Positions 35,596-57,330 of a stretch of 57,330 nucleotides of DNA are shown here, in pieces. Numbering within the stretch: position 1 is the stretch's first letter; each line of letters opens with the position of its first letter. The position numbers were made by a program, and so were the translations under genes. The stretch is from Chloroflexota bacterium. Lineage in GTDB: Bacteria; Chloroflexota; Anaerolineae; UBA1429. The notes beneath the pieces are model-generated. The model was not told where the DNA came from. It ran no database searches and saw only the letters and a program-made list of their open reading frames with translations. Where the stretch lies: NCBI GenBank assembly GCA_012728955.1, contig JAAYED010000139.1, positions 1-57,330 on the forward strand, in the 5' to 3' direction.

Positions 35596-35624
35596 TTGAC
35601 GCACCGTGCCGCACACCCCATAAT
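35596..35624 (+). promoter_or_regulatory. Predicted promoter of the CHAT-AAA gene, leaderless type
   Basis: TTGACG (35596-35601), 17 bp, CATAAT (35619-35624). The ATG at 35632 begins 7 nt after the -10, so the transcript would start at or one base before the start codon. Confidence 0.6.
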
Positions 35625-35631
35625 CTTGCCC

Positions 35632-37857
35632 ATGCAAGCCCCCCCTGATCCGGCCATGGACTATCTCAGTTTTGACCTGCGCATCGGGGAATGGAGCCCT
35701 CAAACCCACCAGGGGATGATCGAGGTGCTGCATTCGCCCTCTGGCGAGGGTCGTCGTTACCCTTTTGTCCTGGAGGTAGACCCAACGGCCGTATTGCGCG
35801 GGCTCGCGGCGGACCCCTCCCAGGCGCGCCGCCTGGGTCGCTTGCTCGCCAACGCCATCTTTCGGCACGAAGTCGCCCTGGTGTGGTACGAGAGCTATCA
35901 GATAGCCAAGGAGCGCAACTGCGGATTGCGCCTGCGCCTGCATATAGAGTCCTGGGAGCTCGCACGGCTGCCCTGGGAGCTGCTCTTTGACACACGGGCG
36001 GACGAGTTCATGGCCTTTGATGAGCGGGTCTCGATCACCCGCTACATCCGTCTCAACTCGGCACCTCCCGTGCTGCAAGGCTCCGAGGCGCTGAGCATCC
36101 TCGTGGTAGCGGCGAGCCCCACAGACGAGGCACCGCTGCGCTGGGAGAACGAGATCGCCTTGTTGCGCGAGGCAGTAGAGCCGCTGGCGCGACTGGGCAA
36201 GGTGATGCTCACCATTTGCGAGCACGCCACTCGAGAGAGTCTGCATGCCGCTCTGGTCGAGAGCCGGCCCCATGTGGTGCACCTGATTGGCCACGCCGAG
36301 TACGATGTGCTGCAGCAGCAGGGCTTTATGGTGCTGGAAGATGCCAATCGCCGCTCCGTGCATGTCGATGCCACCGAACTGGCACGGCTGCTGCGGCGCT
36401 ATGGCACCCATGCGGTGATTTTGAACGCCTGCGAGAGCGCGCGGGGCATTTGGGCGGGCCTGGCGCCCACCCTGGTGCGCGCGGATGTCCCCGCAGTGGT
36501 GGCCATGCAGTGGCCCATCGAGGATCGCGCCGCTCTGACCTTTAGCAAGGCTTTTTACCGCACGCTCGCCGCGGGCAGGCCCATCGACGCCTGTGTCTCC
36601 GAGGGGCGCGTGGCCATCGATACGGCTGCCCCGCATACTCTGATGTGGGCGGCTCCGGTGCTCTTCATCCGATCACTGGATGGCCAGCTCCTGGAGCCAC
36701 AGGCCCATCGTCGGTTACGTCAGGCCGCCCGGGGGAGCCGTTCCGGCCAGCCCGAGGCGACTACCAGCAACCGCCAGGCGGGGCCACACTTTCGCACCCG
36801 GGGACCTTTGCAGCTTCCCGAGGATGAGGCGGTCCTCGTCGACCGCCCCGAGTTGGACCATGCGCTGCAGATCGCCCAGCAGCCGGTGGTAACCCAGTAT
36901 CTGGCCATCCTGAGCCCCAGACAGACGGGCAAGACCACCCTGTTGTTGCGCATGATGGATGTACTCGGTGAGCAGAGTGCCTGCGTCTTGGTCGATCTCT
37001 CGGTGCTGCGGGGCCAGAATGTGCCGGACTGCTTTCGGCTGGTGTCCGCCCAACTTGCCGCAGCACTGGAGCCCTTGAAGGGAAGCGCCCGCCTGCCGGC
37101 AGCAAACGGTTCCATCGATTCGCCGGTGGCCTTTCTCGACTTTGTCCAGCGGATGGCCCGCGCCGTGCATGTGCCCAGGATCGTACTGCTGATGGACGAA
37201 CTGGGTGCGCTGGAGCCTGAAGTTTCGGACGCCTTTTTCAACACCGTGCGGACCATTTACACCCAGGGCCGCGGGTTGCGCAACGCACTGGCCAAGTATC
37301 TGTTTGTGTTCAGCGGTGCGGTAGACCTCTATGGCCTTACTTTTGGCACCAATTCGCCGCTCAACATCTGCGACAAGCTCTATCTGCAGGACCTGACGGC
37401 AGCGCAGGTGGCGCAATTGGTTGGGCAGCTGAACAAGCTGGGAGGCACTGTCGCGCCAGAGGCGCCCGAGGCTGTGTACGCGCTGACGGGCGGACACCCC
37501 TATCTGGCCATGCGCCTGTGTGCGTTGCTGGAGACAGCCCTGCCTTCACCGATCACCGCGCAGACCGTGCAACGCGCTGCTGCTCAGATGCTCATCGAAG
37601 ATGACAATATCGGGCACCTGCTTCGGGCACTGGACGGTCAGCCCGGTGCGAGACGACTCTTGTACAGCATCCTCATGGAAGGCCAGGCAGTGCCCTTTAG
37701 TCGCAACAATCCCATCCTGGCATCACTGGAGATGATGGGCGCCATCAAACCGACCCAACCCTGTGCTGTGCGCAACCAACTGTACGAGCGCGCGCTGCGC
37801 GAGTACTATGCCTCGCCGGGCGCTCAGACCAGGGGAACCCGACGCCCCCACCGCTAA
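35632..37857 (+). CDS. CHAT protease fused to an AAA-like ATPase
   Basis: A 741-residue fusion. The N-terminal part has RLRLHIESWELARLPWELL, typical of the region before CHAT domains; the caspase-like CHAT domain has His221 in LIGHAEYD and Cys267 in LNACESARG, both intact, and AVVAMQWPIEDRAA after. A 60-residue linker leads to an AAA-like NTPase with Walker A SPRQTGKTT (Lys434), Walker B LLMDE (Asp522, Glu523), FSGAVDLYGLT, and ALTGGHPYLAMRLC, the usual end of AAA_35-like domains, then a winged-helix-like tail. The plan suggests a sensor-switch NTPase controlling a protease, as in bacterial immune or cell-death proteins. The ATG at 35632 fits a leaderless mRNA; ATG 35656 is the alternative. 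It is not in an operon. Confidence 0.83.
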   Translation: MQAPPDPAMDYLSFDLRIGEWSPQTHQGMIEVLHSPSGEGRRYPFVLEVDPTAVLRGLAADPSQARRLGRLLANAIFRHEVALVWYESYQIAKERNCGLRLRLHIESWELARLPWELLFDTRADEFMAFDERVSITRYIRLNSAPPVLQGSEALSILVVAASPTDEAPLRWENEIALLREAVEPLARLGKVMLTICEHATRESLHAALVESRPHVVHLIGHAEYDVLQQQGFMVLEDANRRSVHVDATELARLLRRYGTHAVILNACESARGIWAGLAPTLVRADVPAVVAMQWPIEDRAALTFSKAFYRTLAAGRPIDACVSEGRVAIDTAAPHTLMWAAPVLFIRSLDGQLLEPQAHRRLRQAARGSRSGQPEATTSNRQAGPHFRTRGPLQLPEDEAVLVDRPELDHALQIAQQPVVTQYLAILSPRQTGKTTLLLRMMDVLGEQSACVLVDLSVLRGQNVPDCFRLVSAQLAAALEPLKGSARLPAANGSIDSPVAFLDFVQRMARAVHVPRIVLLMDELGALEPEVSDAFFNTVRTIYTQGRGLRNALAKYLFVFSGAVDLYGLTFGTNSPLNICDKLYLQDLTAAQVAQLVGQLNKLGGTVAPEAPEAVYALTGGHPYLAMRLCALLETALPSPITAQTVQRAAAQMLIEDDNIGHLLRALDGQPGARRLLYSILMEGQAVPFSRNNPILASLEMMGAIKPTQPCAVRNQLYERALREYYASPGAQTRGTRRPHR

Positions 37858-37877: not shown

Positions 37878-37905
37878 TTGACAGCGCGTCCCGGGACCCT
37901 ATAAT
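37878..37905 (+). promoter_or_regulatory. Predicted promoter of the small membrane protein
   Basis: TTGACA (37878-37883), 16 bp, TATAAT (37900-37905): close to consensus. The ATG at 37939 has GGGAG 12 nt upstream. Confidence 0.7.
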
Positions 37906-37938: not shown

Positions 37939-38307
37939 ATGGTACGGACCAAGTTACCTGTCAGCCTCTGGTTGATTGCCATCGGGCAATTTATTGCGCC
38001 GCTGATTTTCCCACCCTCCTTTTACAAGGCAATTGGTGTGCCTGGCTGGATTGCTGCAGCCGCTGTTTTTTCGGCTCTGGGCGTGAATCTGCTGCTGCGT
38101 CGCGAGTGGGCACGGGTGGCCACCGTTTTTGTCCAGGGATTGTCCTTTATTGTGCGTCTGCTGACCCTGCTGAGCAATGCCGTTCCGGCTCCCGAGGCCC
38201 CCACCAACGTGGTGCTGGTGATTACCTTTCTGGTGTCCATGGCCCTCTCGGCCATCATCCTGTTCCGAGTGGATCGGCCAGACGTCCAGTTGCTGATGCA
38301 GCACTGA
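37939..38307 (+). CDS. Small four-helix membrane protein
   Basis: A 122-residue protein with four predicted transmembrane helices: LWLIAIGQFIAPLIF, WIAAAAVFSALGVNLLL, a central VFVQGLSFIVRLLTLL, and VVLVITFLVSMALSAIILF. No known motif was recognised. It has its own near-consensus promoter. It is upstream of the complex I-like operon, which has a separate promoter, so a shared role is only possible by position. Confidence 0.65.
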   Translation: MVRTKLPVSLWLIAIGQFIAPLIFPPSFYKAIGVPGWIAAAAVFSALGVNLLLRREWARVATVFVQGLSFIVRLLTLLSNAVPAPEAPTNVVLVITFLVSMALSAIILFRVDRPDVQLLMQH

Positions 38308-47757: not shown

Positions 47758-47834
47758 CGGGGTGTGGCGCAGTTTGGTAGCGCGCAGCGTTTGGGACGCT
47801 GAAGTCAGAGGTTCAAGTCCTCTCACCCCGACCA
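47758..47834 (+). tRNA. tRNA-Pro (anticodon TGG), CCA encoded
   Basis: Complete cloverleaf: acceptor CGGGGTG/CACCCCG, D stem GCGC, anticodon stem CAGCG/CGCTG around a loop with TGG, T arm AGAGG/CCTCT with TTCAAGT. A discriminator A is followed by an encoded CCA. Confidence 0.95.
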
Positions 47835-47846
47835 GTCAGGAAACAT

Positions 47847-47918
47847 GCGGGCGTAGCTCAGTGGTAGAGCTCCTGCCTTCCAAGCAGGTTGTCGCGCGTT
47901 CAAATCGCGTCGCCCGCT
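47847..47918 (+). tRNA. tRNA-Gly (anticodon TCC), CCA not encoded
   Basis: Acceptor GCGGGCG/CGCCCGC, D stem GCTC/GAGC, anticodon stem CCTGC/GCAGG with TCC, T arm GCGCG/CGCGT with TTCAAAT (one G-U pair). The discriminator is T and is followed by CAG, so CCA must be added after transcription. Same transcript as tRNA-Pro, 12 nt apart. Confidence 0.95.
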
Positions 47919-48019
47919 CAGTAGTGCCCCAGTAGTGTGATCGCGTATGGTGCCTGCGGGCAGTGATCCGCCGCGATGATGGGCCCAACGGCAGTCGTGC
48001 AGCTCTTGGACCGGCAAGC
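47919..48019. other. Short non-coding stretch after tRNA-Gly
   Basis: An 8-bp direct repeat CAGTAGTG (47919-47926 and 47930-47937) abuts the 3' end of tRNA-Gly. No ORF or other element is seen before the terminator. Confidence 0.35.
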
Positions 48020-48054
48020 AAACCGCGTCCGGGTGAGTCACCCGGGCGCGGTTT
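48020..48054. terminator. Strong bidirectional intrinsic terminator
   Basis: A 15-bp stem (one G-U pair), 48020-48034 with 48040-48054, loop GAGTC, starting AAACCGCG and ending CGCGGTTT. A T-rich tail follows on both strands. It separates the tRNA transcript from the convergent defence operon. Confidence 0.9.
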
Positions 48055-48064
48055 CTGTTTGCGA

Positions 48065-51000
48065 TCAGCCCCCCTCGGCGCGTTGCAGAGTGGCGGCGAC
48101 GCCCCCCCATTCGGCCCAGTCGGGCCGGGTGTCCCAGCCATGGGCCACCCGCGGGTCGGCCGGGGGCGGATCCAGCCGGGTGCGATACTGCTCCAGCCCG
48201 GCGGCCATCTCGTCGTACATCTCCAGGATCACCCGCCGGGTGCGGTACTCGCCGTACTGCTCCTCATCGCGGCGGCGGACGATGGGAAAGGTGTCCAGGA
48301 TATAGCCCACATCCTCCCGGGCGATGCCATAGAGATGGAAATAGAGGGCGTCCAGCTCGCAGCGCAGCAGGAAACGCCGCTCCGGATCCCAGCGAAAGGG
48401 CGGCCCCTCATAGCCGCAGTCCCGGGCAAAGCCCTGCAGGTCCCAGGCGGTGTAGGTGAGCTCAAGAACGGCCGCTTGTATGAAACGGGCAACGCTGTCC
48501 CTGTACGCACAGGGAGGCAAGACGGGTACCTGCTTCAGGATAAAATATCCCAGAGACGTGCCACCCACTTTCTGTCTCGCAACATAGTCACACACAATAG
48601 TGCACAGCGAGGCCAGTAGCAGAGGGGACGCAGGTGGCAGATCCTTCAGAAACAGGAGAGGCGCCTTGTGACCAACGGCACTCGTGGGCAAGACACTGAA
48701 TATGGCCGTCCGCTCGTCCGTAGCGCGGGCGGTATCACGAAAACCGGACAACCACGGCCTGCTCCATGTGCCCAGCCGCTCCTGGGTGTGCCCACGAGAG
48801 ACCCAGTACCGTGGCAGGGGAAGGGCGGCAGGGTTCCTCTTTTCCTGCAGGGTCATGTTCCGTGTTTTAGGGCCATCATAGGTGGCCCAGCGGTGGTCGA
48901 AGTGGTGCAGCATCTTGCCCTCGAACAGGGGCAGGCAGCGCTCCTCGTCCCGCCAAAAGACGTTGCCGCGCAGCGCCCAGCCCTCCCCTTCCAGCTGCTC
49001 CCGGGTGCGGAACAGGTAAGAGTCGTTGGACATATGGAACATGGTGGCGAAACGGATGCCCCAGGGGTTCTCCTCCGGCGGCCCCTCCAGCCAGAGCACC
49101 GGCACACGGCGGTAGATGCTCTTGGTCAGCTCGGCGTCGTGCCGGGTGCGAAAGATGGGGCAGGTGCCGGTGTTGGGGTTGATCAGCGCGATCTCTTGCG
49201 GCGTCAGCGTGAAACGCCGCTGCGGGTCGCGGATGTCCTCCACCCCCTGGGCAAAAAAGACCAGGCTCGCCCCCGCGGGGTTTGAGCGGCCAGCCCCCGC
49301 CATCGTCAACAGGCAGAATTTCATGCGACTGTCAACAGCAGGAAACAGTTTGCGGCGATTCTCAAAGTCGTACAGCGAGACCAGCGTGTTGGTCTGCATG
49401 AGGTCCCTGAAATAGTACTGGGTGGTGGCGTCGGTGGCGATGCCCGAGGGCACGATGATGCCCACCCGTCCCGCAGGGGCCACCAGGTTGCGCGCCAGCT
49501 CGGCAAATACGGCGTAGGTGTTGATGTCCCCTCGCCCGCAGAGGGGGTAGAGGCCGCTGTTGCGCAGCAGGTGACTCCAGCCATCGGCCTCGCGCAGCGC
49601 CTGCTGAAAAGAGGCATAGAGTGCCGGCGCCGTCTCCTGCAGCTCGGCGATGGCCCGCTTGCGGGCTGCCGCGTTGCTGGCGGCGGCCACATCCGGTGCC
49701 CGGGCAGCGAACCACTCTTTTTCCTGCAGTTTGGTGCGCTCCCAGGGCGGGTTGCCCAGCACCACGTCGAACCCGCCGCAGCAGCCGGTGAGGGGGTTAT
49801 CGGGCGCCTCCCCCGCCAGGGCCGGCCGCAGCACGTGGGGAAAGCGCAGGTGCCAGTGAAAAAAGCGGTACTGGTCCGCCAGGCGGCCTATCTCGTCCCT
49901 CAACCAGGAGGCCACCTGGTGCGGCCCGCGCTCCAGCTCCCGAAAGCGGCGTTCGGTGAGGCCGTAATCCCAGCGCTCGGACTTTTCCCAGACAAAGGCC
50001 GCGCACCAGGCGTCGGCCCAGAGCTGGCTGTTTTCCCAGGCCGCAGAGCGCACCAGCTCGGCGTACATCTCCTCCTTGGTGCGCACGTCGTCGGCATCCT
50101 GATCGGGCATGGCCAGCAGCTGGCCCAGCTCGCTGGCCAGATTGCCCAGCCGATCCCAGGGCTGCAGCGAGTCCGGGTCAAAGAGCCGCCCCTGCCCGTT
50201 CTGCAGGTCCTCCCGCTCCTGCCGGTTCTGTTTGCGCCAGGCCGCCGCCACCGACTTGATGTCCCCGGTGATGGGCCAAAAGGCCCCATCGGGGATGCCC
50301 TCCGCCAGAGCCCGGGGCGTGGCGCCCAGCAGGCTGTTGCCGCACTGGATGTTGGCATCCAGAAAGGAGAGCGGCCGGCCGGGATCCAGCGTCTCCAACC
50401 AGAGGTTGATCTTGCACAGCTCTACCGCCATGGGGTTGATGTCCACCCCATGGATGCAGGCGGCCACCACCTCGCGCAGGGCGGCGCGCAGCTCGGCCAG
50501 GCCGGGCTGCTCCTCACCGGTGCGCACCCGGGCCAGCTCACGGGCCAGACGGTGGGCGGCCCCGATGAGAAAGTGCCCGCTGCCGCAGGCGGGATCCAGC
50601 ACCTTGATGCTCAGGATGGCCGCCTCCCGCTCCTGCCTGTCGCGCAGACCCTGCAGGCGCTCGGCGATCACCGGCTCCAGGGCGGAATCCAGCAGCGATT
50701 GGATCAGCGAGGTGGGGGTATAGTACGAGCCGGTGGTTTTGCGCTCTGAACCGGCCGCCACGGCGATGTCAAAGAGACCCGCATCGATGTGCACGCTGGG
50801 ATGCATCTCCAGGAGCGACTCGTAGACGCTGCCCAGCTCCTCCGGCCCCAGGTTGCGATAGTCCACCGCCCGGCGCACGTCCCCCTGTACCGTGTAGGAC
50901 AGTGCACGCAGCGCCTCATAGAGATCCGTGTTGGCCAGGTGGGCGTGCTCCAGGTCGGGGGCCGCCTCCGGCCCAAAGAGAAAGCCGCCCAGCCCGGCCA

Positions 51001-52096
51001 GGCCCAGCAGCGAGTGATCATCATGGAGCTGGCGCCACACCACCGTCAGTCCCTGCCAGGCATCGCCATGGGCGGTGCCGCGCGACTGGCCCGCCAGACG
51101 TCGCAGGCGGGCGGTGGAATAGTACTCTAAATAGATGCGCCGCTGCTCCCGAGTGGCGTCCGGGCGGAGTAACAGATCGCGATCCTCAGCCACAAAGCTA
51201 AAGATCAACCGGTAAACCAGCCGCAGCAGCTGCTGATAGTATCCCAGCGTACTCAGCTCGCCGCTCCTGAGCCGGCTCACCAGCTCGGGGTTGAGGGGCG
51301 CCCCTCCCCGCTGGGCGAGAAAGCCCCGGCCCAGAGAGCGGATGGCCTCGACCACACCGTCGCGCAGGGCCTCCAGCGCCCGGGTGCCGCTTTCGGCGGC
51401 GGATTGCGACCAGCGCTCCAGCCAGAATTGCGCGGGATCGTCCCCCTCCACCCGCGACTGGTGACACACCAGCCAGAGCACCGCAAAGTCGGCGTACTGC
51501 TCGCCCTGGAACATGCTCTCCAGATCAAACTCGACAAAGGCCTGCCGGGTGAGCGAGGCATTGTCCCGCAGGATGCGCAGGCGCAGTCCGTTGGAGACAA
51601 ATCCCCACAGATAGTCGGGAGAGCGGTTGAGAAACTCTTGCAGCAGCGAATGCGGCCCGCGCTTGAGAGCGGTGTCCACATCGCTGCGCCTGTCCAGCTC
51701 CTGGCGAAAGGTCACCAGATGGATGGGCACGCGCCCCCAGGCATGGCTGACGGGATAGCTCTGCCCCGCCGCCTCCAACCCGCGGGCAAGCTGCAGCTGA
51801 CCATAGCCCAGCACGTTGAACAGGGGCAGCAACCAGCGCTCACGGGTGAGGGTGGTGCCGGTGTCGCCGGGGGGGAGTTGCTGACGGGCGGCATCAAAGC
51901 GCCCCCAGGCGGCCAGGCAGCGGGCCCAGGCGGCGTTGATCTCTTCGTTGAGGCGCTGCTCGGGCGCCAGATGATAGTCCTGGGGCCGCAGGCCCCCCAG
52001 ATCGCTGCCCTGTGCCACGCGCAGCAGCAGATCCGCCGGCAGGATGGCTCCCTCGGTGCGGATGGTGGTGAACAAGGAACGGGCGGTGGTCTCCAT
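48065..52096 (-). CDS. Eco57I/PglX-type N6-adenine DNA methylase (DrmMI-like)
   Basis: A 1343-residue DNA methylase. Motif I is VLDPACGSGHFLIGAA (about residue 500), with GVDINPMAVELCKINLWLE as the next SAM strand; the catalytic motif IV is GNPPWERTK (about 780). The methylase core is flanked by a long helical N-terminus and a large C-terminal DNA-recognition half with a YWVSRGHTQERLGT-like segment. The size and order match the adenine methylases of class 1 DISARM and BREX. ATG 52096 has GAGAGG upstream; an in-frame GTG at 52126 would overlap the SNF2 stop. It is the last gene of the operon and ends at a terminator. In such systems it marks the host DNA as self. Confidence 0.88.
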   Translation of the reverse strand: METTARSLFTTIRTEGAILPADLLLRVAQGSDLGGLRPQDYHLAPEQRLNEEINAAWARCLAAWGRFDAARQQLPPGDTGTTLTRERWLLPLFNVLGYGQLQLARGLEAAGQSYPVSHAWGRVPIHLVTFRQELDRRSDVDTALKRGPHSLLQEFLNRSPDYLWGFVSNGLRLRILRDNASLTRQAFVEFDLESMFQGEQYADFAVLWLVCHQSRVEGDDPAQFWLERWSQSAAESGTRALEALRDGVVEAIRSLGRGFLAQRGGAPLNPELVSRLRSGELSTLGYYQQLLRLVYRLIFSFVAEDRDLLLRPDATREQRRIYLEYYSTARLRRLAGQSRGTAHGDAWQGLTVVWRQLHDDHSLLGLAGLGGFLFGPEAAPDLEHAHLANTDLYEALRALSYTVQGDVRRAVDYRNLGPEELGSVYESLLEMHPSVHIDAGLFDIAVAAGSERKTTGSYYTPTSLIQSLLDSALEPVIAERLQGLRDRQEREAAILSIKVLDPACGSGHFLIGAAHRLARELARVRTGEEQPGLAELRAALREVVAACIHGVDINPMAVELCKINLWLETLDPGRPLSFLDANIQCGNSLLGATPRALAEGIPDGAFWPITGDIKSVAAAWRKQNRQEREDLQNGQGRLFDPDSLQPWDRLGNLASELGQLLAMPDQDADDVRTKEEMYAELVRSAAWENSQLWADAWCAAFVWEKSERWDYGLTERRFRELERGPHQVASWLRDEIGRLADQYRFFHWHLRFPHVLRPALAGEAPDNPLTGCCGGFDVVLGNPPWERTKLQEKEWFAARAPDVAAASNAAARKRAIAELQETAPALYASFQQALREADGWSHLLRNSGLYPLCGRGDINTYAVFAELARNLVAPAGRVGIIVPSGIATDATTQYYFRDLMQTNTLVSLYDFENRRKLFPAVDSRMKFCLLTMAGAGRSNPAGASLVFFAQGVEDIRDPQRRFTLTPQEIALINPNTGTCPIFRTRHDAELTKSIYRRVPVLWLEGPPEENPWGIRFATMFHMSNDSYLFRTREQLEGEGWALRGNVFWRDEERCLPLFEGKMLHHFDHRWATYDGPKTRNMTLQEKRNPAALPLPRYWVSRGHTQERLGTWSRPWLSGFRDTARATDERTAIFSVLPTSAVGHKAPLLFLKDLPPASPLLLASLCTIVCDYVARQKVGGTSLGYFILKQVPVLPPCAYRDSVARFIQAAVLELTYTAWDLQGFARDCGYEGPPFRWDPERRFLLRCELDALYFHLYGIAREDVGYILDTFPIVRRRDEEQYGEYRTRRVILEMYDEMAAGLEQYRTRLDPPPADPRVAHGWDTRPDWAEWGGVAATLQRAEGG

Positions 52097-52118
52097 GGCC
52101 TCTCTCTCGGTGATCGGC

Positions 52119-54933
52119 TCAGGCACCCATCGGCGCCAGCACATAGATGCCCAGCACATCGGGCGTGTGGGATACGATGCGAAAGCGCACTCCCTGCAGG
52201 CGCTGCGCCGTGCGAACACGACGATGCTGCTCCAGAATCTCCTTGCCACGGTCTTCTGCGAGCTCGGCCACGTACTGGCGCAAGCCCTCATAGCTTTCAA
52301 CGACGCGGCGCACAAACTGGGTCGCCTGGGCGGGAGCCAGGTTGGCGTCAGGGGTGGCGGCCAGCAGTTCCTCTACCCGCTCTGCGGAGAGTGGGTGGAG
52401 GTCCTTCAGGCTCCCTTCCAGGCCAACCATCATGCAATCCTCTGCCAGCAGCTCTGACTGCTGCCCGTCCCGCATGGTGATGATGTGATAGCGCAGACGG
52501 AGCAGCAGCAGAGTGGTGGTGACACGCACGGCGCGGGTGCGGATGGCGCCGCAACGTCGGCCGATGCCATCCAGGAGGGGATCCAGCGTCGAATCGATGA
52601 CGTGGGAGGCGAGGCCCTCGACCAGGGGATGGGTGCGGTTGAGGTACAGGGTGCCGGGCTGCACCGGCAGCTGATAGGCCACACGCAGGCCCGATTTGTC
52701 CTCGGTCAGTAACTGGATGGCCTGATTGGCTGGCAGGTGAAGCACCTCGCTCCCATTATGAGAGCTCACCGTGCCGCCCGCAGCGCTGATCGCCTCATGC
52801 ACAAACCGCTGTACATCGGTGTGCGTGCCGATGGCGGCGCGTACGGCCTGCCACTCGGCAAACACCTGCTGACCATCGATGGTGCGTTGGGCAAAGAGCG
52901 TCCGCGAGCGTTGCTCCCGCTCGGTGGCGTTCTGCCAGGCCGTGTCCATGGCCTGCAACTCGCGGGGCTGCATGGCCTCAAAGGACAGCTGACGGGCGTC
53001 GGCGCCGGAGCGCAGCAGCAGCCCCTTGACGATCGCCTCGATCAGGTCCTGCGTGCGGGCGGGCACCGGCACAGAGATGCCCAGCGAGGAGCGAATCGTC
53101 CGGTGTTTGCGAATCAACACCTCCAGCACCAGGCCATCGATCTGGTTATCGATCCCATAGAGTGTCAGCGTGCGTACGGTGGACCTGGGCTGGCCATAGC
53201 GATCGACGCGCCCCTCACGCTGCTCGTGGCGGGTGGGATTCCAGCTGAGGTCATAGTGCACCACGGCATCGAACCAGTTCTGCAGGTTGATGCCCTCGCT
53301 CAGACAATCGGTGGCCACCAGCACACGTCTGGTGCGCTGGCCCAGTTCCTGCACCCGCGCCTCGCGCTCGGCGGGGGGGGAGAAGGCCGGTTACTGCGGC
53401 GATATCCACATCGGCAGGCAGCACCGTGCCCACCAGCGCCCGCAGCTGGTCAGCGAGATACTCGGCGGTGGGGATAAAGCGGCAAAAGAGGATGGGGTTA
53501 TAGCCCTCCTGCAGAAGCTGGCTCACCAAGCGGGCAGCCACGTCCAGTTTCAGGTCCTTGCCGGGGCCAAAGAGAGCCTGCGCCTGGCGCGCGTAGCGCA
53601 GCAAACGCTGTCGATCGCCAGAACCCTCTTCCTCCTGGCCCCCGGGAGCAGGATCCAGAGGCTGGGTATCGTCCGTATCGTCCTGATCCAAAACGTAACG
53701 CTCACCGAGCGCATCCACCTCGTCGACCGTTTCCGCATCGGCAGTTTGCGAGCGGGCCCGCAGGGTGGCCGCTGCGGCCGCCGGGCTGCTCGCCAGCGAG
53801 CGCAGCAGGGCGAGCAAGGACCACCAGCGCACACGCTGCTGGCGCGCCTCGCCTTCGGTGCTGCGCACGCGGTCCCGCGCATAGTCCAGCACCTGCTCAA
53901 AGAGGTGTCGGTAGGCCTGACTGAGCTCGTAGGTCTGCTCCGCCTCTTCGCGCTGCGGAAAAGGCGTTTCCTCCTGGCTGAAATGCCGTACATCTTCCCG
54001 GCGACGCTGCACCAGGTGAAGCGCCACCCTGCGGCGGTCCTGCTCGTGCTCCGGGCCGGACAGGTCCTCCGGCAGGTCGGCAAAATCGGCCCGCAAGAGT
54101 TGCAGCAGGGAGCGAAAGGCGCCTTCATCGCCACTGTGCGGCGTGGCCGTCACCAGTATCAAGTGCCGATCCTCAGCCACGGCCAGTTCCTGCAAGAGTC
54201 GGTGGCGCTGATGACGCCCCCGCTGGGCAGCCGAAAAGGCACAGGTGTGCGCTTCATCCACGATGACGAATTCGGGACAGGTGCGCACGAACTCGTTTCG
54301 TCGGCGATCCGACTTGATATAGTCGGTGCTCACGATCACATAGGGGTAGAGATCAAAGAGCGACTGGTCGTGCCCGATGTTGCGCTCGAGGCGATGCACG
54401 GTGCTGGGCAGCACGAGAACGGCGTCGATGTGAAATTTGCTGCGCAGCTCCTCCTGCCACTGCTCCGCAAGGTGCGGAGGGCACAGGACGGCCAGACGGC
54501 CAATCTCGCCGCGATCCAGCAACTCACGGGCGATCAGCCCTGCCTCGATCGTCTTGCCGATGCCGACGTCATCGGCGATCAGCAGCCGCACCGGATCGAG
54601 ACGCAGAGCCATGAGCAGCGGCACCAGCTGGTAGGGACGGGGCTCGACGTTCAGCCGGGCAAAGGAGCGAAAGGGACCGGCGCTGGAACGAAAGCCCAAA
54701 CGGACCGCATCCCGGAGCAGCCGACTGGAGCGAAAGTCCCCGGGATGGCTGGCATCGGGCAGGTCAAAGGTGGCGGGCGCCACGTCATCCGCCTCCAGAG
54801 GGAGATAGATGCCCGTGGTCTCCTGCGGGCTGCCACCCAGCGGGCGGAGCATCAGGAGATCGTCGCGCGAGTCGGGCAACACCACCCACTCTCGCCCGCG
54901 GGCGCGCACCAGTGAACCTACGGCAAAGGACAT
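52119..54933 (-). CDS. SNF2-type helicase (DrmD-like), frameshifted at a C8 tract
   Basis: Together the two frames encode about 938 residues of an SNF2-family translocase. The first frame (54933 down to about 53381) has [16 protein letters not shown] (motif I), [19 protein letters not shown] (II) and [14 protein letters not shown] (III); the second (about 53372 down to 52119) has [17 protein letters not shown] (V) and [18 protein letters not shown] (VI), then a long C-terminal part. The break is exactly at eight C residues on the coding strand. With seven C the chain reads on as [17 protein letters not shown], as expected for the family. Motif order, the insert between domains and the neighbouring methylase match DrmD of class 1 DISARM. 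Whether it is a phase-OFF state, a read error or a pseudogene is open. Confidence 0.85.
53373..53380 (-). repeat. Homopolymer run of eight C (coding strand) at the frameshift
   Basis: Eight consecutive G on the plus strand lie at the exact point where the SNF2 reading frame changes. Loss of one base restores a full-length protein. Confidence 0.9.
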
Positions 54934-54951
54934 GTGCAGATTCTCCCTCTA

Positions 54952-54971
54952 CTGCCCGGACACCCGGGCAG
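54952..54971. other. Small inverted repeat in the defence operon
   Basis: CTGCCCGG-ACAC-CCGGGCAG, an 8-bp stem with a 4-nt loop, 40-bp gap between the DUF1998 helicase stop and the SNF2 ATG. It lacks a T run, so it may tune expression between the genes or protect the mRNA rather than terminate. Confidence 0.4.
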
Positions 54972-54973
54972 GG

Positions 54974-57330
54974 CTATTCGTTGCTGCCGAACAGGTAGGC
55001 ATGCTCCTGCAGGATCGCATCCCAGCCAGAATCAGGGAGCGGAAAGCGTATGGACGTGATGCCTGCGGACAACAGGCGGTCCTCAGCCTCGCGATCGCGC
55101 TGCTTCTGATCCTGCCACTGGTGATCAGGGCCGTCCACGAAAACGGCCACCTGGGCCTCGCGGTAGTAAAAATCAGGCCGAACAAAGCACCCCTCGATCT
55201 CTTTCTGAGCCTCATCGGGCAGCCTCAGCTGTTTTGCATCCACATGACGCAACCACTGGCGTTCGAGGTCGCTCTCACAGATCGCGAGGAGCCTCTGCAG
55301 GGTGTCTTCACGGGAAGCTGCGCCAGGGCTGACGCCCACTCTGGCCTCTTTCAGTTGCATCAGCAGGTCACGGATCAGGTGGCGATCCAGCAGCTCGTGG
55401 TCGCGCTGGTTATAGTAGCTCATCAGACAGTCATAGCAGGCAGCTTCGCACTCTTGACCTTGGCGACGACTGACATTCTCGCCAGTGTCGGGATCAAAGT
55501 GGCAGACCTCCAGCGCAGCCCGCGCCACCCGGCCCAGGGCACGCGGATCGGTCACCAGCTGGCGCAGAACCCCTGCGCCGCCCTCTGCCGCCTCGTACAA
55601 TACGATAACGCGCCTGTCCCGCTCGCTGGGGAGTGGCTCGGCTGCCAGCTCGCTATCCTCCAGCTGATACAGAACCTGGATCCCGTGCTTGAGTGCAGTC
55701 TGCAGGGTGGCCATTACCTGTATCGGCTGCGGCTCTGGGAAGCGAATGAGCAGACAGTTGCGCCGATCCTCCACAAATGGGATCACGCGCTCGCGGCGGG
55801 GGCTCATCGGATCCTCCAGGTCGTCATCATCATCCGCGTTTCTCTGCCAATAGCCCCGCTCGACATCCAGCATGAAACCAAGAGGAGAGTCAGGTGTGCG
55901 CCGCCGCCAGCCACGGTTCACACGCCAGATGGTGGCTGCATGCCCATAGCTGAAGGACAAGAGTTGCCTGTCATCCTGATCGAACACATCGGCGCGCTGT
56001 TCGAGGGTTTCGCCCTCGCGCTGGCCAAAACGGATGGCACTGAACAGGTCATAGCCCATGCGCAAGCGCTCTTCCTCATCAGAGTTGATGCGATCGCGCC
56101 GCCGCGTCGAGACGTTCTGCATGCGCAACATGCCAGACAAGGGCGCCCCCAGTGCCGCCCCGCAGTACTCGCAAATGTCCGGCCCGTCGCCAGAGGAAAT
56201 GGGGTGCAGGTAGCCACAGACCGGGCACACTTTGGCTCGCGTGGTGAGGGTTGCCTCTACGCTTTCCTCCACGGGAAGCATTACCCGGTTGACCACATAG
56301 CGCGAGCCTTCGTGATAGATGATGTTGCGCGGGCCGAACTCGGATATCGCCAAAAAGCGTGGACGAGACAGGAACTCGTTGTCATTGGGGCCCCGGCGCG
56401 CTGGAATGTAGGCTGACAGAGGCAATCGTGGAAAGCTGTAGCCAGGGAGAAACCCCTCACTTGCAAAGTAGCGATAGCTGTAAAAGTCAGACTGAAGCGT
56501 CGAGCCCCCAGAGTCAGACATGAGGATATTCTGCTGCTGTACGGCTTCCCTGCGCAGCCGCTCAGCCTTGTCTCTGTCTTCCTTTGAGCGAGACGCATCC
56601 AGGGTGATCCTTCCCTGGACCTGTGCCTGGCTGAGGGCAGAGCGATACAGGGAACGCCAGCGATCGCAGGCGGCGTCAAAGCGATGTTCCACGTTCTCCA
56701 GGTTACGCCAGAGCCAGCCTTTATCGTACCAGTCTGAAGAGGCCAACTCTCCCTCGAGAGTCTGGAGTATGCGACTGAACCGTACAGCAGCACGCTCTTT
56801 GGCCGAGCGGGATGCAAGGCTGTGGCGCACCGACTCGGTGAGCTTGAGACTGGGCGAATCACCGGCGACGTCGAGCAACTCGGTGAGAGAACTGTACAAG
56901 GAGGCGCCCGTCTCGGTGAGCCAGACGGCATCGAGATGTGCCCGCACCAGATCTTCGTTGGCGAGATCCAATCGCGGCGGGGCCACCGCGCCAGATACCA
57001 TGTCCGAGGCGTGCCGGAAGTAGTACTGATCGTGCGGGCTGCCCCTGGTGCAGTAGGTATAGACCAAGGCGGGTTGACCACTGCGCCCCGCGCGACCGCT
57101 CCGTTGCGCATAGTTCGCAGGCGATGGCGGAACGTTGCGCATGTTCACTACGTTCAGTTGCGCAATGTCGATCCCCAGCTCCATGGTGGGTGAACAGTAG
57201 AGGATGGGGAGCTCTCCAGAGCGAAAGCGCCTTTCGCGATCCTGTCTGACCTCGGCTCTAACCTGGGCGGTATGTTCCGCCGCAGTCACATCCATATAGT
57301 TTCTTGCCCGTCGCGTGTAAACATCAATAA
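54974..57330 (-). CDS. DEAD/DEAH helicase with DUF1998 and C-terminal nuclease-like domain, 5' end missing
   Basis: At least 785 residues, open past the right edge, so the N-terminal RecA-like domain is outside the window. Visible are helicase motifs V and VI (SPTMELGIDIAQLN, YAQRSGRAGRSGQPAL), a helical region, a zinc site CPVCG...CEYCG, and the DUF1998/MrfA zinc cluster GGAGVL...CEAACYDCLMSYYNQ with DHELLDRH. The last 90 or so residues (RPDFYYREAQVAVFVDG.DHQ......RD, then SIRFP) match a Vsr/DUF559-type PD-(D/E)xK nuclease fold with D, E-equivalent and K/Q positions. It precedes the SNF2 gene by 40 bp and is likely its operon partner; DISARM DrmA/DrmB split these helicase and DUF1998 parts over two genes. 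Confidence 0.82.
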   Translation of the reverse strand, partial: IDVYTRRARNYMDVTAAEHTAQVRAEVRQDRERRFRSGELPILYCSPTMELGIDIAQLNVVNMRNVPPSPANYAQRSGRAGRSGQPALVYTYCTRGSPHDQYYFRHASDMVSGAVAPPRLDLANEDLVRAHLDAVWLTETGASLYSSLTELLDVAGDSPSLKLTESVRHSLASRSAKERAAVRFSRILQTLEGELASSDWYDKGWLWRNLENVEHRFDAACDRWRSLYRSALSQAQVQGRITLDASRSKEDRDKAERLRREAVQQQNILMSDSGGSTLQSDFYSYRYFASEGFLPGYSFPRLPLSAYIPARRGPNDNEFLSRPRFLAISEFGPRNIIYHEGSRYVVNRVMLPVEESVEATLTTRAKVCPVCGYLHPISSGDGPDICEYCGAALGAPLSGMLRMQNVSTRRRDRINSDEEERLRMGYDLFSAIRFGQREGETLEQRADVFDQDDRQLLSFSYGHAATIWRVNRGWRRRTPDSPLGFMLDVERGYWQRNADDDDDLEDPMSPRRERVIPFVEDRRNCLLIRFPEPQPIQVMATLQTALKHGIQVLYQLEDSELAAEPLPSERDRRVIVLYEAAEGGAGVLRQLVTDPRALGRVARAALEVCHFDPDTGENVSRRQGQECEAACYDCLMSYYNQRDHELLDRHLIRDLLMQLKEARVGVSPGAASREDTLQRLLAICESDLERQWLRHVDAKQLRLPDEAQKEIEGCFVRPDFYYREAQVAVFVDGPDHQWQDQKQRDREAEDRLLSAGITSIRFPLPDSGWDAILQEHAYLFGSNE

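What the first reader, a model, noticed from the sequence alone, without database searches (positions are those of the whole stretch)
35632..37857. CHAT protease joined to an AAA-like switch ATPase in one chain
Both the His-Cys pair (His221, Cys267) and the Walker motifs (Lys434, Asp522-Glu523) are intact. CHAT proteases linked to NTPase sensors act as immune or death effectors in bacteria. This gene is single, with a leaderless-type promoter. It may sense a trigger through the ATPase or its winged-helix tail and cut a target protein.
Basis: partly seen in the sequence, partly recalled or inferred. Interest (0 to 1): 0.58.

Follow-up and report, generated by a model that had tools for sequence, protein, structure and literature searches.

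The report
Core-genome CHAT protease with NLR-like switch
A bacterium of the phylum Chloroflexota carries, in one protein, a caspase-like protease and an ATP switch built like those of plant and animal immune receptors; its close relatives keep it as an ordinary chromosomal gene, and a possible membrane-sensor partner lies elsewhere in the same genome.

Summary
A model places the ATPase half with archaeal STAND-type ATPases, plant NLRs, CED-4 and Apaf-1 (Z 16-23) and the CHAT half with SAVED-CHAT and Craspase TPR-CHAT (Z 17-20).

'Defence gene' is only partly supported. Thirteen of 15 family genomes carry it, single-copy, beside ordinary genes (rpiA, TruD, a D-aminopeptidase). The dyad is kept in 13 of 13 and selection is strongly purifying: a core gene rather than a mobile island gene.

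New here: in other families of the class, the closest AAA_35 proteins lie directly downstream of a second STAND-like ATPase (16 of 16), mostly with a predicted outside beta-propeller and a transmembrane helix, and their effector end varies (two-TM domain, TIR-like, CHAT). The window's genome keeps a relative of that ATPase on another contig.

Best reading: the effector half of a bipartite NLR-like system. Trigger, substrate and outcome are unknown.

The parts
35656..37857 (+).
35596..35624 (+). promoter-like site TTGACG-17-CATAAT, similar site at a like place in G001 and G006
35656..35835 (+). N-terminal beta-rich part; TPR-CHAT and Csx29 alignments begin at residue 3-4
35836..36663 (+). CHAT domain (PF12770)
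   Evidence: 8tl0 Z 20.4 over model residues 141-346
36691..36786 (+). fast-changing linker, low model confidence
36817..37791 (+). AAA_35 (PF14516) STAND-like ATPase with winged-helix part
36916..36936 (+). Walker A, PRQTGKT
37183..37200 (+). Walker B, VLLMDE

Best explanation
It is the effector half of a chromosomal, NLR-like signalling system. The N-terminal CHAT protease is held silent by the C-terminal STAND-type ATPase. On a signal, nucleotide exchange and opening of the ATPase lead to oligomerisation that brings CHAT domains together and switches on cleavage of one or a few proteins, causing growth arrest, death or a stress programme. The signal most likely does not enter through this chain, which ends right after the winged helix and has no sensor repeats, but through a second STAND ATPase, in many relatives a predicted single-pass membrane protein with an outside beta-propeller. 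That protein is encoded next to the AAA_35 gene in other families of the class and on a separate contig in this genome. Shown: both domains, catalytic residues, STAND-like fold of the model, purifying selection, the operon in relatives, co-occurrence. Inferred: autoinhibition, oligomerisation, partnership in trans, proteolysis, outcome.
For: Domains and motifs. Model: residues 377-716 match 2qen (Z 23.1, 309 residues, 3.5 A), 2fna (21.7), plant NLRs WRR4A 18.8 and NRC4 18.7, CED-4 17.5, Apaf-1 16.1; residues 141-346 match SAVED-CHAT 8tl0 (20.4, 24% identity); residues 4-341 match TPR-CHAT 18.1. Dyad in 13 of 13 family copies; dN/dS of CHAT 0.05-0.08 in three close pairs. 16 of 16 AAA_35 proteins listed outside the family lie directly downstream of an nSTAND-like ATPase, with effector ends two-TM 12, TIR-like 2, CHAT 1, short two-TM tail 1. 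16 of 17 such ATPases longer than 1100 aa have a TM helix between propeller repeats and ATPase. AAA_35 and that ATPase occur together in 20 of 150 class genomes, 6 and 3 alone, 121 neither. A relative lies in this genome at G000:C237.
Against: Four of 15 family genomes have the protease and no detected partner (G002, G006, G008, G010) and one (G005) has the partner and no protease. G006 has Gln at the Walker B Glu. In this family the two genes are never adjacent in the ten loci read. The co-occurrence test is not corrected for relatedness, and both alignments used for it were built from some of the same genomes. The orthologues are in housekeeping surroundings, so a defence role is not shown. 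pTM 0.50: domain packing is not known.
Confidence: 0.5

Rival explanations
1. A stand-alone regulatory protease. The ATPase senses a cytosolic ligand, nucleotide state or DNA by itself, and CHAT cuts a regulator (for example an anti-sigma factor or repressor) as a housekeeping stress response, without any immune role or partner.
For: 13 of 15 family genomes, ordinary neighbours, strong constraint, own promoter-like site. The sister of the CHAT fold in the list includes DdvA, titled a transmembrane anti-sigma factor. Family genomes without the partner keep the gene.
Against: The ATPase is nested among operon AAA_35 proteins with TIR-like, TM and CHAT ends, an effector-swapping pattern more usual in conflict systems. 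In 10 of 15 family genomes the partner is present.
Confidence: 0.3
2. A classical anti-phage abortive-infection gene of the Avs or NACHT kind, working alone and sensing a phage product.
For: STAND-like fold and CHAT end; another CHAT plus NACHT-like protein in the class (G255); a cluster of defence-type genes starts about 10 kb downstream in the window.
Against: No C-terminal sensor repeats; nearly universal and single-copy in the family; ordinary neighbours; no copy found in viral contigs and only one plasmid record covering 80% or more of the query.
Confidence: 0.13
3. A DNA-bound or replication-linked factor: the ATPase is an Orc/Cdc6-like DNA binder and CHAT is a degenerate scaffold.
For: Orc/Cdc6 structures are also among the matches of the ATPase part. 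The C-terminal extra domain of many orthologues weakly resembles restriction-endonuclease folds.
Against: His and Cys invariant in 13 of 13 and CHAT the most constrained part. The extra domain is missing in the window protein. STAND and NLR structures score as high as or higher than Orc/Cdc6.
Confidence: 0.07

Closest known systems
Cyanobacterial CHAT-AAA_35 protein (Tolypothrix sp. PCC 7910 plasmid, WP_167727962.1)
   Same: Same order CHAT (57-322) then AAA_35 (376-706); 27.8% identity over 89% of the query; next gene also an AAA_35 protein
   Different: On a mobilizable plasmid; Asn-Ser-Cys at the CHAT Cys motif; partner carries TPR and GUN4 rather than a beta-propeller; annotated only as AAA-like protein
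SAVED-CHAT (8tl0; PADLOC SAVED_CHAT)
   Same: CHAT protease end: Z 20.4, 24% identity over 190 residues; PADLOC match over residues 192-357 only
   Different: Switch is a SAVED domain there; here a STAND-like ATPase. No SAVED match
Craspase TPR-CHAT / Csx29
   Same: CHAT with its N-terminal part, Z 17-18 over residues 3-344
   Different: That one is switched by a CRISPR effector and target RNA; no CRISPR link was looked for or seen here
CED-4 / Apaf-1 / plant NLR switch modules
   Same: Fold of the ATPase part, Z 16-19; CHAT belongs to the caspase-like clan (recalled)
   Different: There the protease is a separate protein or the effector is another domain, and a sensor end is present; here protease and switch are one chain without a sensor end
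STAND, caspase-like and TIR conflict systems of multicellular bacteria (PMC7159879, PMC8195603, PMC10907252; passages read)
   Same: Caspase-like or TIR effectors joined to or encoded with STAND NTPases; a two-gene membrane system is described in section 33 of PMC7159879
   Different: Those passages describe MoxR-vWA, EACC1, EAD and DGR parts; a beta-propeller-TM-nSTAND plus AAA_35-effector pair was not in the passages I read

Membership tests
CHAT protease (PF12770) | Profile match over the curated cut-off | tested here: met
   113.1 bits against 24
CHAT protease (PF12770) | Catalytic His and Cys present and conserved | tested here: met
   13 of 13 family copies
CHAT protease (PF12770) | Cleaves a peptide bond | not testable with these tools
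   needs an assay
AAA_35 (PF14516) | Profile match over the curated cut-off | tested here: met
   62.6 bits against 27
STAND NTPase | Walker A and Walker B | tested here: met
   Lys and Asp 11 of 11, Glu 10 of 11 full-length copies
STAND NTPase | NBD, helical and winged-helix arrangement | tested here: met
   predicted model aligns over residues 377-716 with 2qen, 2fna, NLRs, CED-4, Apaf-1; Orc/Cdc6 also match, so fold alone does not separate STAND from them
STAND NTPase | GxP motif (recalled) | tested here: met
   Gly-His-Pro-Tyr-Leu 613-617 invariant in 11 of 11; that this is the GxP motif is my reading
STAND NTPase | Match to a Pfam nSTAND or NACHT profile | tested here: not met
   none up to E 1
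Avs/NLR-type receptor | C-terminal sensor repeats | tested here: not met
   chain ends about 15 residues after the last helix of the ATPase/winged-helix part
Known defence system | Full-length match to a PADLOC model | tested here: not met
   only part matches: SAVED_CHAT 192-357, BovA 193-325, mad8 424-458
Known defence system | Location in defence islands across relatives | tested here: not met
   ordinary neighbours in the same-family loci whose flanks were annotated; a defence-type cluster starts 10 kb away in the window alone examined

The most novel reading that the evidence does not exclude
Anaerolineae carry a bipartite, membrane-anchored NLR-like system. A receptor with an outside beta-propeller, one transmembrane helix and an inside STAND ATPase relays an extracellular signal to a second STAND ATPase whose effector is exchangeable (two-TM domain, TIR-like, CHAT, possibly a transglutaminase-like domain). 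In the window's family the pair has been split and domesticated into the core genome: the receptor sits behind the DNA polymerase III alpha gene, and the effector has become a one-chain CHAT-STAND protease.
Probability: 0.35. Interest if true: 0.75.

Novelty: new variant of a known kind. Interest (0 to 1): 0.55.

Why it matters
CED-4 and Apaf-1 recruit a separate caspase. Here a caspase-like fold and an NLR-like switch are one protein that a bacterial family keeps as a core gene. If the membrane partner is real, it would be a bacterial receptor-to-STAND-to-protease relay that reads the outside of the cell. The effector swapping offers direct tests: the same ATPase with different acting ends.

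Tried and rejected
Viral contigs: 8 stretches matched a pattern, none a relative. Plasmids: 58 records with some match, one covering 80% or more of the query. Defence context: PADLOC on eight window neighbours and two orthologue neighbours gave only matches of FtsK and of a HerA-like ATPase to shared ATPase models. Idea that rpiA or the 122-aa protein is a functional partner: rejected, since in most genomes they lie on contigs other than the CHAT-STAND gene's. Idea that the gene spread horizontally within the family: not favoured, since identities track rpiA (Spearman 0.54; 11 of 2000 permutations as high) and less so the 122-aa protein (0.36; 50 of 2000). The yardstick is weak, because rpiA and the 122-aa protein do not track each other (0.04) (11 genomes with all three). 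The extra C-terminal domain of seven orthologues: no Pfam match (one sequence); best folds are restriction endonucleases at Z 7.8 and below, which is within the range of chance for this tool, and no Foldseek match under 0.001; I see no conserved metal-binding motif in the alignment. A 'transglutaminase-like' end in family f42 is my reading of the sequence; Pfam gives no match for the one tested. Literature: 'CHAT' with 'AAA_35' and 'PF14516' gave no paper; 'Anaerolineae' with 'CHAT domain' gave one, about diversity-generating retroelements; searches listed nothing whose title or abstract names this architecture. The library holds no preprints and few subscription papers.

Full report
WHAT IS THERE. 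Window 35656-37857 (+) encodes one chain with an N-terminal beta-rich part, a CHAT domain, a low-confidence linker of about 30 residues and an AAA_35 ATPase with its winged-helix part. The start at 35656 is better than 35632, because orthologues align from that Met and sister genome G001 has a stop just upstream. A sigma-70-type site (10 of 12 matches; three sites found in the scanned stretch against a mean of 0.5 in shuffles) lies just upstream, and a like site stands in G001 and G006. The genome (2.64 Mb, 317 contigs, about 89% complete) has one CHAT and one AAA_35 gene. The named relatives of the same family are Chloroflexi or Anaerolineae metagenome bins.

RELATIVES. Of 15 genomes of the family (the window's own included), 13 have the gene: 11 full length and two cut by contig ends (G007, G013). 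G005 shows only a weak ATPase match and G011 none. Identity to the window protein is 38-70% in the ten other full-length copies. The GH and NAC motifs are intact in 13 of 13. The Walker A Lys and Walker B Asp are kept in 11 of 11, the Walker B Glu in 10 of 11. CHAT is under the strongest constraint (dN/dS 0.05-0.08 in three close pairs), then the ATPase (0.10-0.18); the linker is nearly free. Synonymous sites are near saturation except in G004-G014, and the fourth pair computed, G000-G004, gave 0.21 and 0.24. Seven of 11 full-length copies have an extra domain of about 180 aa at the C-terminus, missing in G000, G001, G006 and G009.

CONTEXT. G001 has the window's gene order from PAC2 to ftsK; G006 has rpiA and the 122-aa gene beside the protease gene; G004 and G014 have the 122-aa gene downstream. 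In G003, G002 and G010 the next gene is a D-aminopeptidase, in G012 and G009 TruD, in G007 a histidine kinase. G008 (3.8 kb contig) and G013 were not judged. None of these neighbours is a defence gene. In a sample of 298 genomes of the class, listed matches spanning CHAT and the whole ATPase were all in this family; outside it the two halves appear apart (only three candidates per genome were scored, and the listing was cut). One further candidate, G255, is a CHAT plus NACHT-like protein.

FOLD. The model has mean pLDDT 78.9 and pTM 0.50, so domain packing is not trusted. The ATPase part matches archaeal 2qen and 2fna, plant NLRs, CED-4 and Apaf-1, and also Orc/Cdc6; the CHAT part matches SAVED-CHAT, TPR-CHAT/Csx29 and DdvA. 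By sequence the only PDB match is SAVED-CHAT, E 0.0014.

THE PARTNER. One search listed 16 AAA_35 matches outside the family. All 16 lie directly downstream of a gene for another ATPase, which scores with AAA_22 and usually nSTAND1 where Pfam was run. By hydropathy and sequence, their C-terminal ends are: two-TM domain in 12 (one TM segment below threshold in G163), TIR-like in two (Pfam run on one, E 8.7e-6), CHAT in one, a short two-TM tail in one. Of 25 upstream or related ATPases read, 17 are longer than 1100 aa; all 17 have 4-12 propeller-type S.D.G..W repeats and 16 of 17 a predicted TM helix between the repeats and the ATPase. The other eight are shorter or cut, and six of them show no such repeat. 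The window's genome has a relative at contig C237, about 34-35% identical to the G020 protein and cut at its N-terminus by the contig end. The G001 orthologue is complete, with a signal-like helix, five repeats, TM 637-655 and AAA_22. In the family, strong matches occur in 10 of 15 genomes. In the seven loci whose contig reaches far enough, the gene follows a long conserved gene that I recognise as DNA polymerase III alpha (by eye, no profile search), and no AAA_35 gene stands beside any of the ten.

CO-OCCURRENCE. In 150 class genomes both genes occur together in 20, AAA_35 alone in 6, the partner alone in 3, neither in 121 (Fisher p about 1e-16, not corrected for relatedness). They are adjacent in 11 and apart in 9 (four of this family, five of f42, which was in neither search alignment). 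Gene trees place this family as one clade among the operon families for both proteins (FastTree, several weak nodes; in f42 the partner falls into two distant groups). This fits an ancestral two-gene system that was split in this lineage, but does not prove it. More distant two-gene pairs show the same theme: CHAT-AAA_35 with AAA_35-TPR-GUN4 in Tolypothrix, CHAT-AAA_35 with AAA_35-TM-TPR-LysM in G108, TIR-AAA_35 with AAA_35-TM-propeller in G139.

MECHANISM. A STAND-like module next to a CHAT protease, with exchangeable ends in relatives, argues that the ATPase is the switch and CHAT the acting end. The chain has no sensor of its own, so the propeller-bearing ATPase is the best sensor candidate. 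Against it stand four family genomes with the protease and no detected partner, and the Walker B change in G006. Whether the result is immunity, cell death or regulation is open. The core-genome spread speaks for a constant physiological or built-in immune role rather than an island-type phage defence.

LITERATURE. I read passages of PMC10907252, PMC7159879 (plus its section 33) and PMC8195603, and only search listings of other papers. They describe STAND, caspase-like and TIR conflict systems in multicellular bacteria, Chloroflexi included, but I saw no AAA_35-CHAT fusion or propeller-TM-STAND pair in those passages.

Noticed in passing
window 47758-57330: After tRNA-Pro and tRNA-Gly comes a cluster of defence-type genes on the minus strand: DrmMI-like or type IIG methylase (48065-52315), two overlapping ORFs matching the two halves of one DpdE model (52119-53354, 53251-54933; split or frameshift), and a helicase with MZB, DruE-like (54974-57295), near the contig end.
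   Followed up: partly
L043 796-3075 (G006): The most divergent orthologue keeps the CHAT dyad but has Asp-Gln at Walker B, and its genome has no detected partner ATPase.
   Followed up: partly
L058 8155-8727 and six other orthologues: A C-terminal domain of about 180 aa, absent from the window protein; confident model (pLDDT 83.7, pTM 0.80) with only weak restriction-endonuclease-like matches.
   Followed up: yes
L136-L140 (family f42): AAA_35 proteins with a different C-terminal end that looks transglutaminase-like to the eye, again with a propeller-TM-nSTAND gene elsewhere in three of the five genomes.
   Followed up: partly
L147 2001-6571, L149 1345-6218, L033 3842-8497: Two-gene pairs in which one AAA_35 protein bears CHAT or TIR and the other bears TPR, LysM, a beta-propeller or GUN4.
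   Followed up: partly
window 37878-37905: Perfect 12 of 12 match to TTGACA-16-TATAAT upstream of the conserved 122-aa protein gene (37939-38307), which is found in 15 of 15 family genomes.
   Followed up: no
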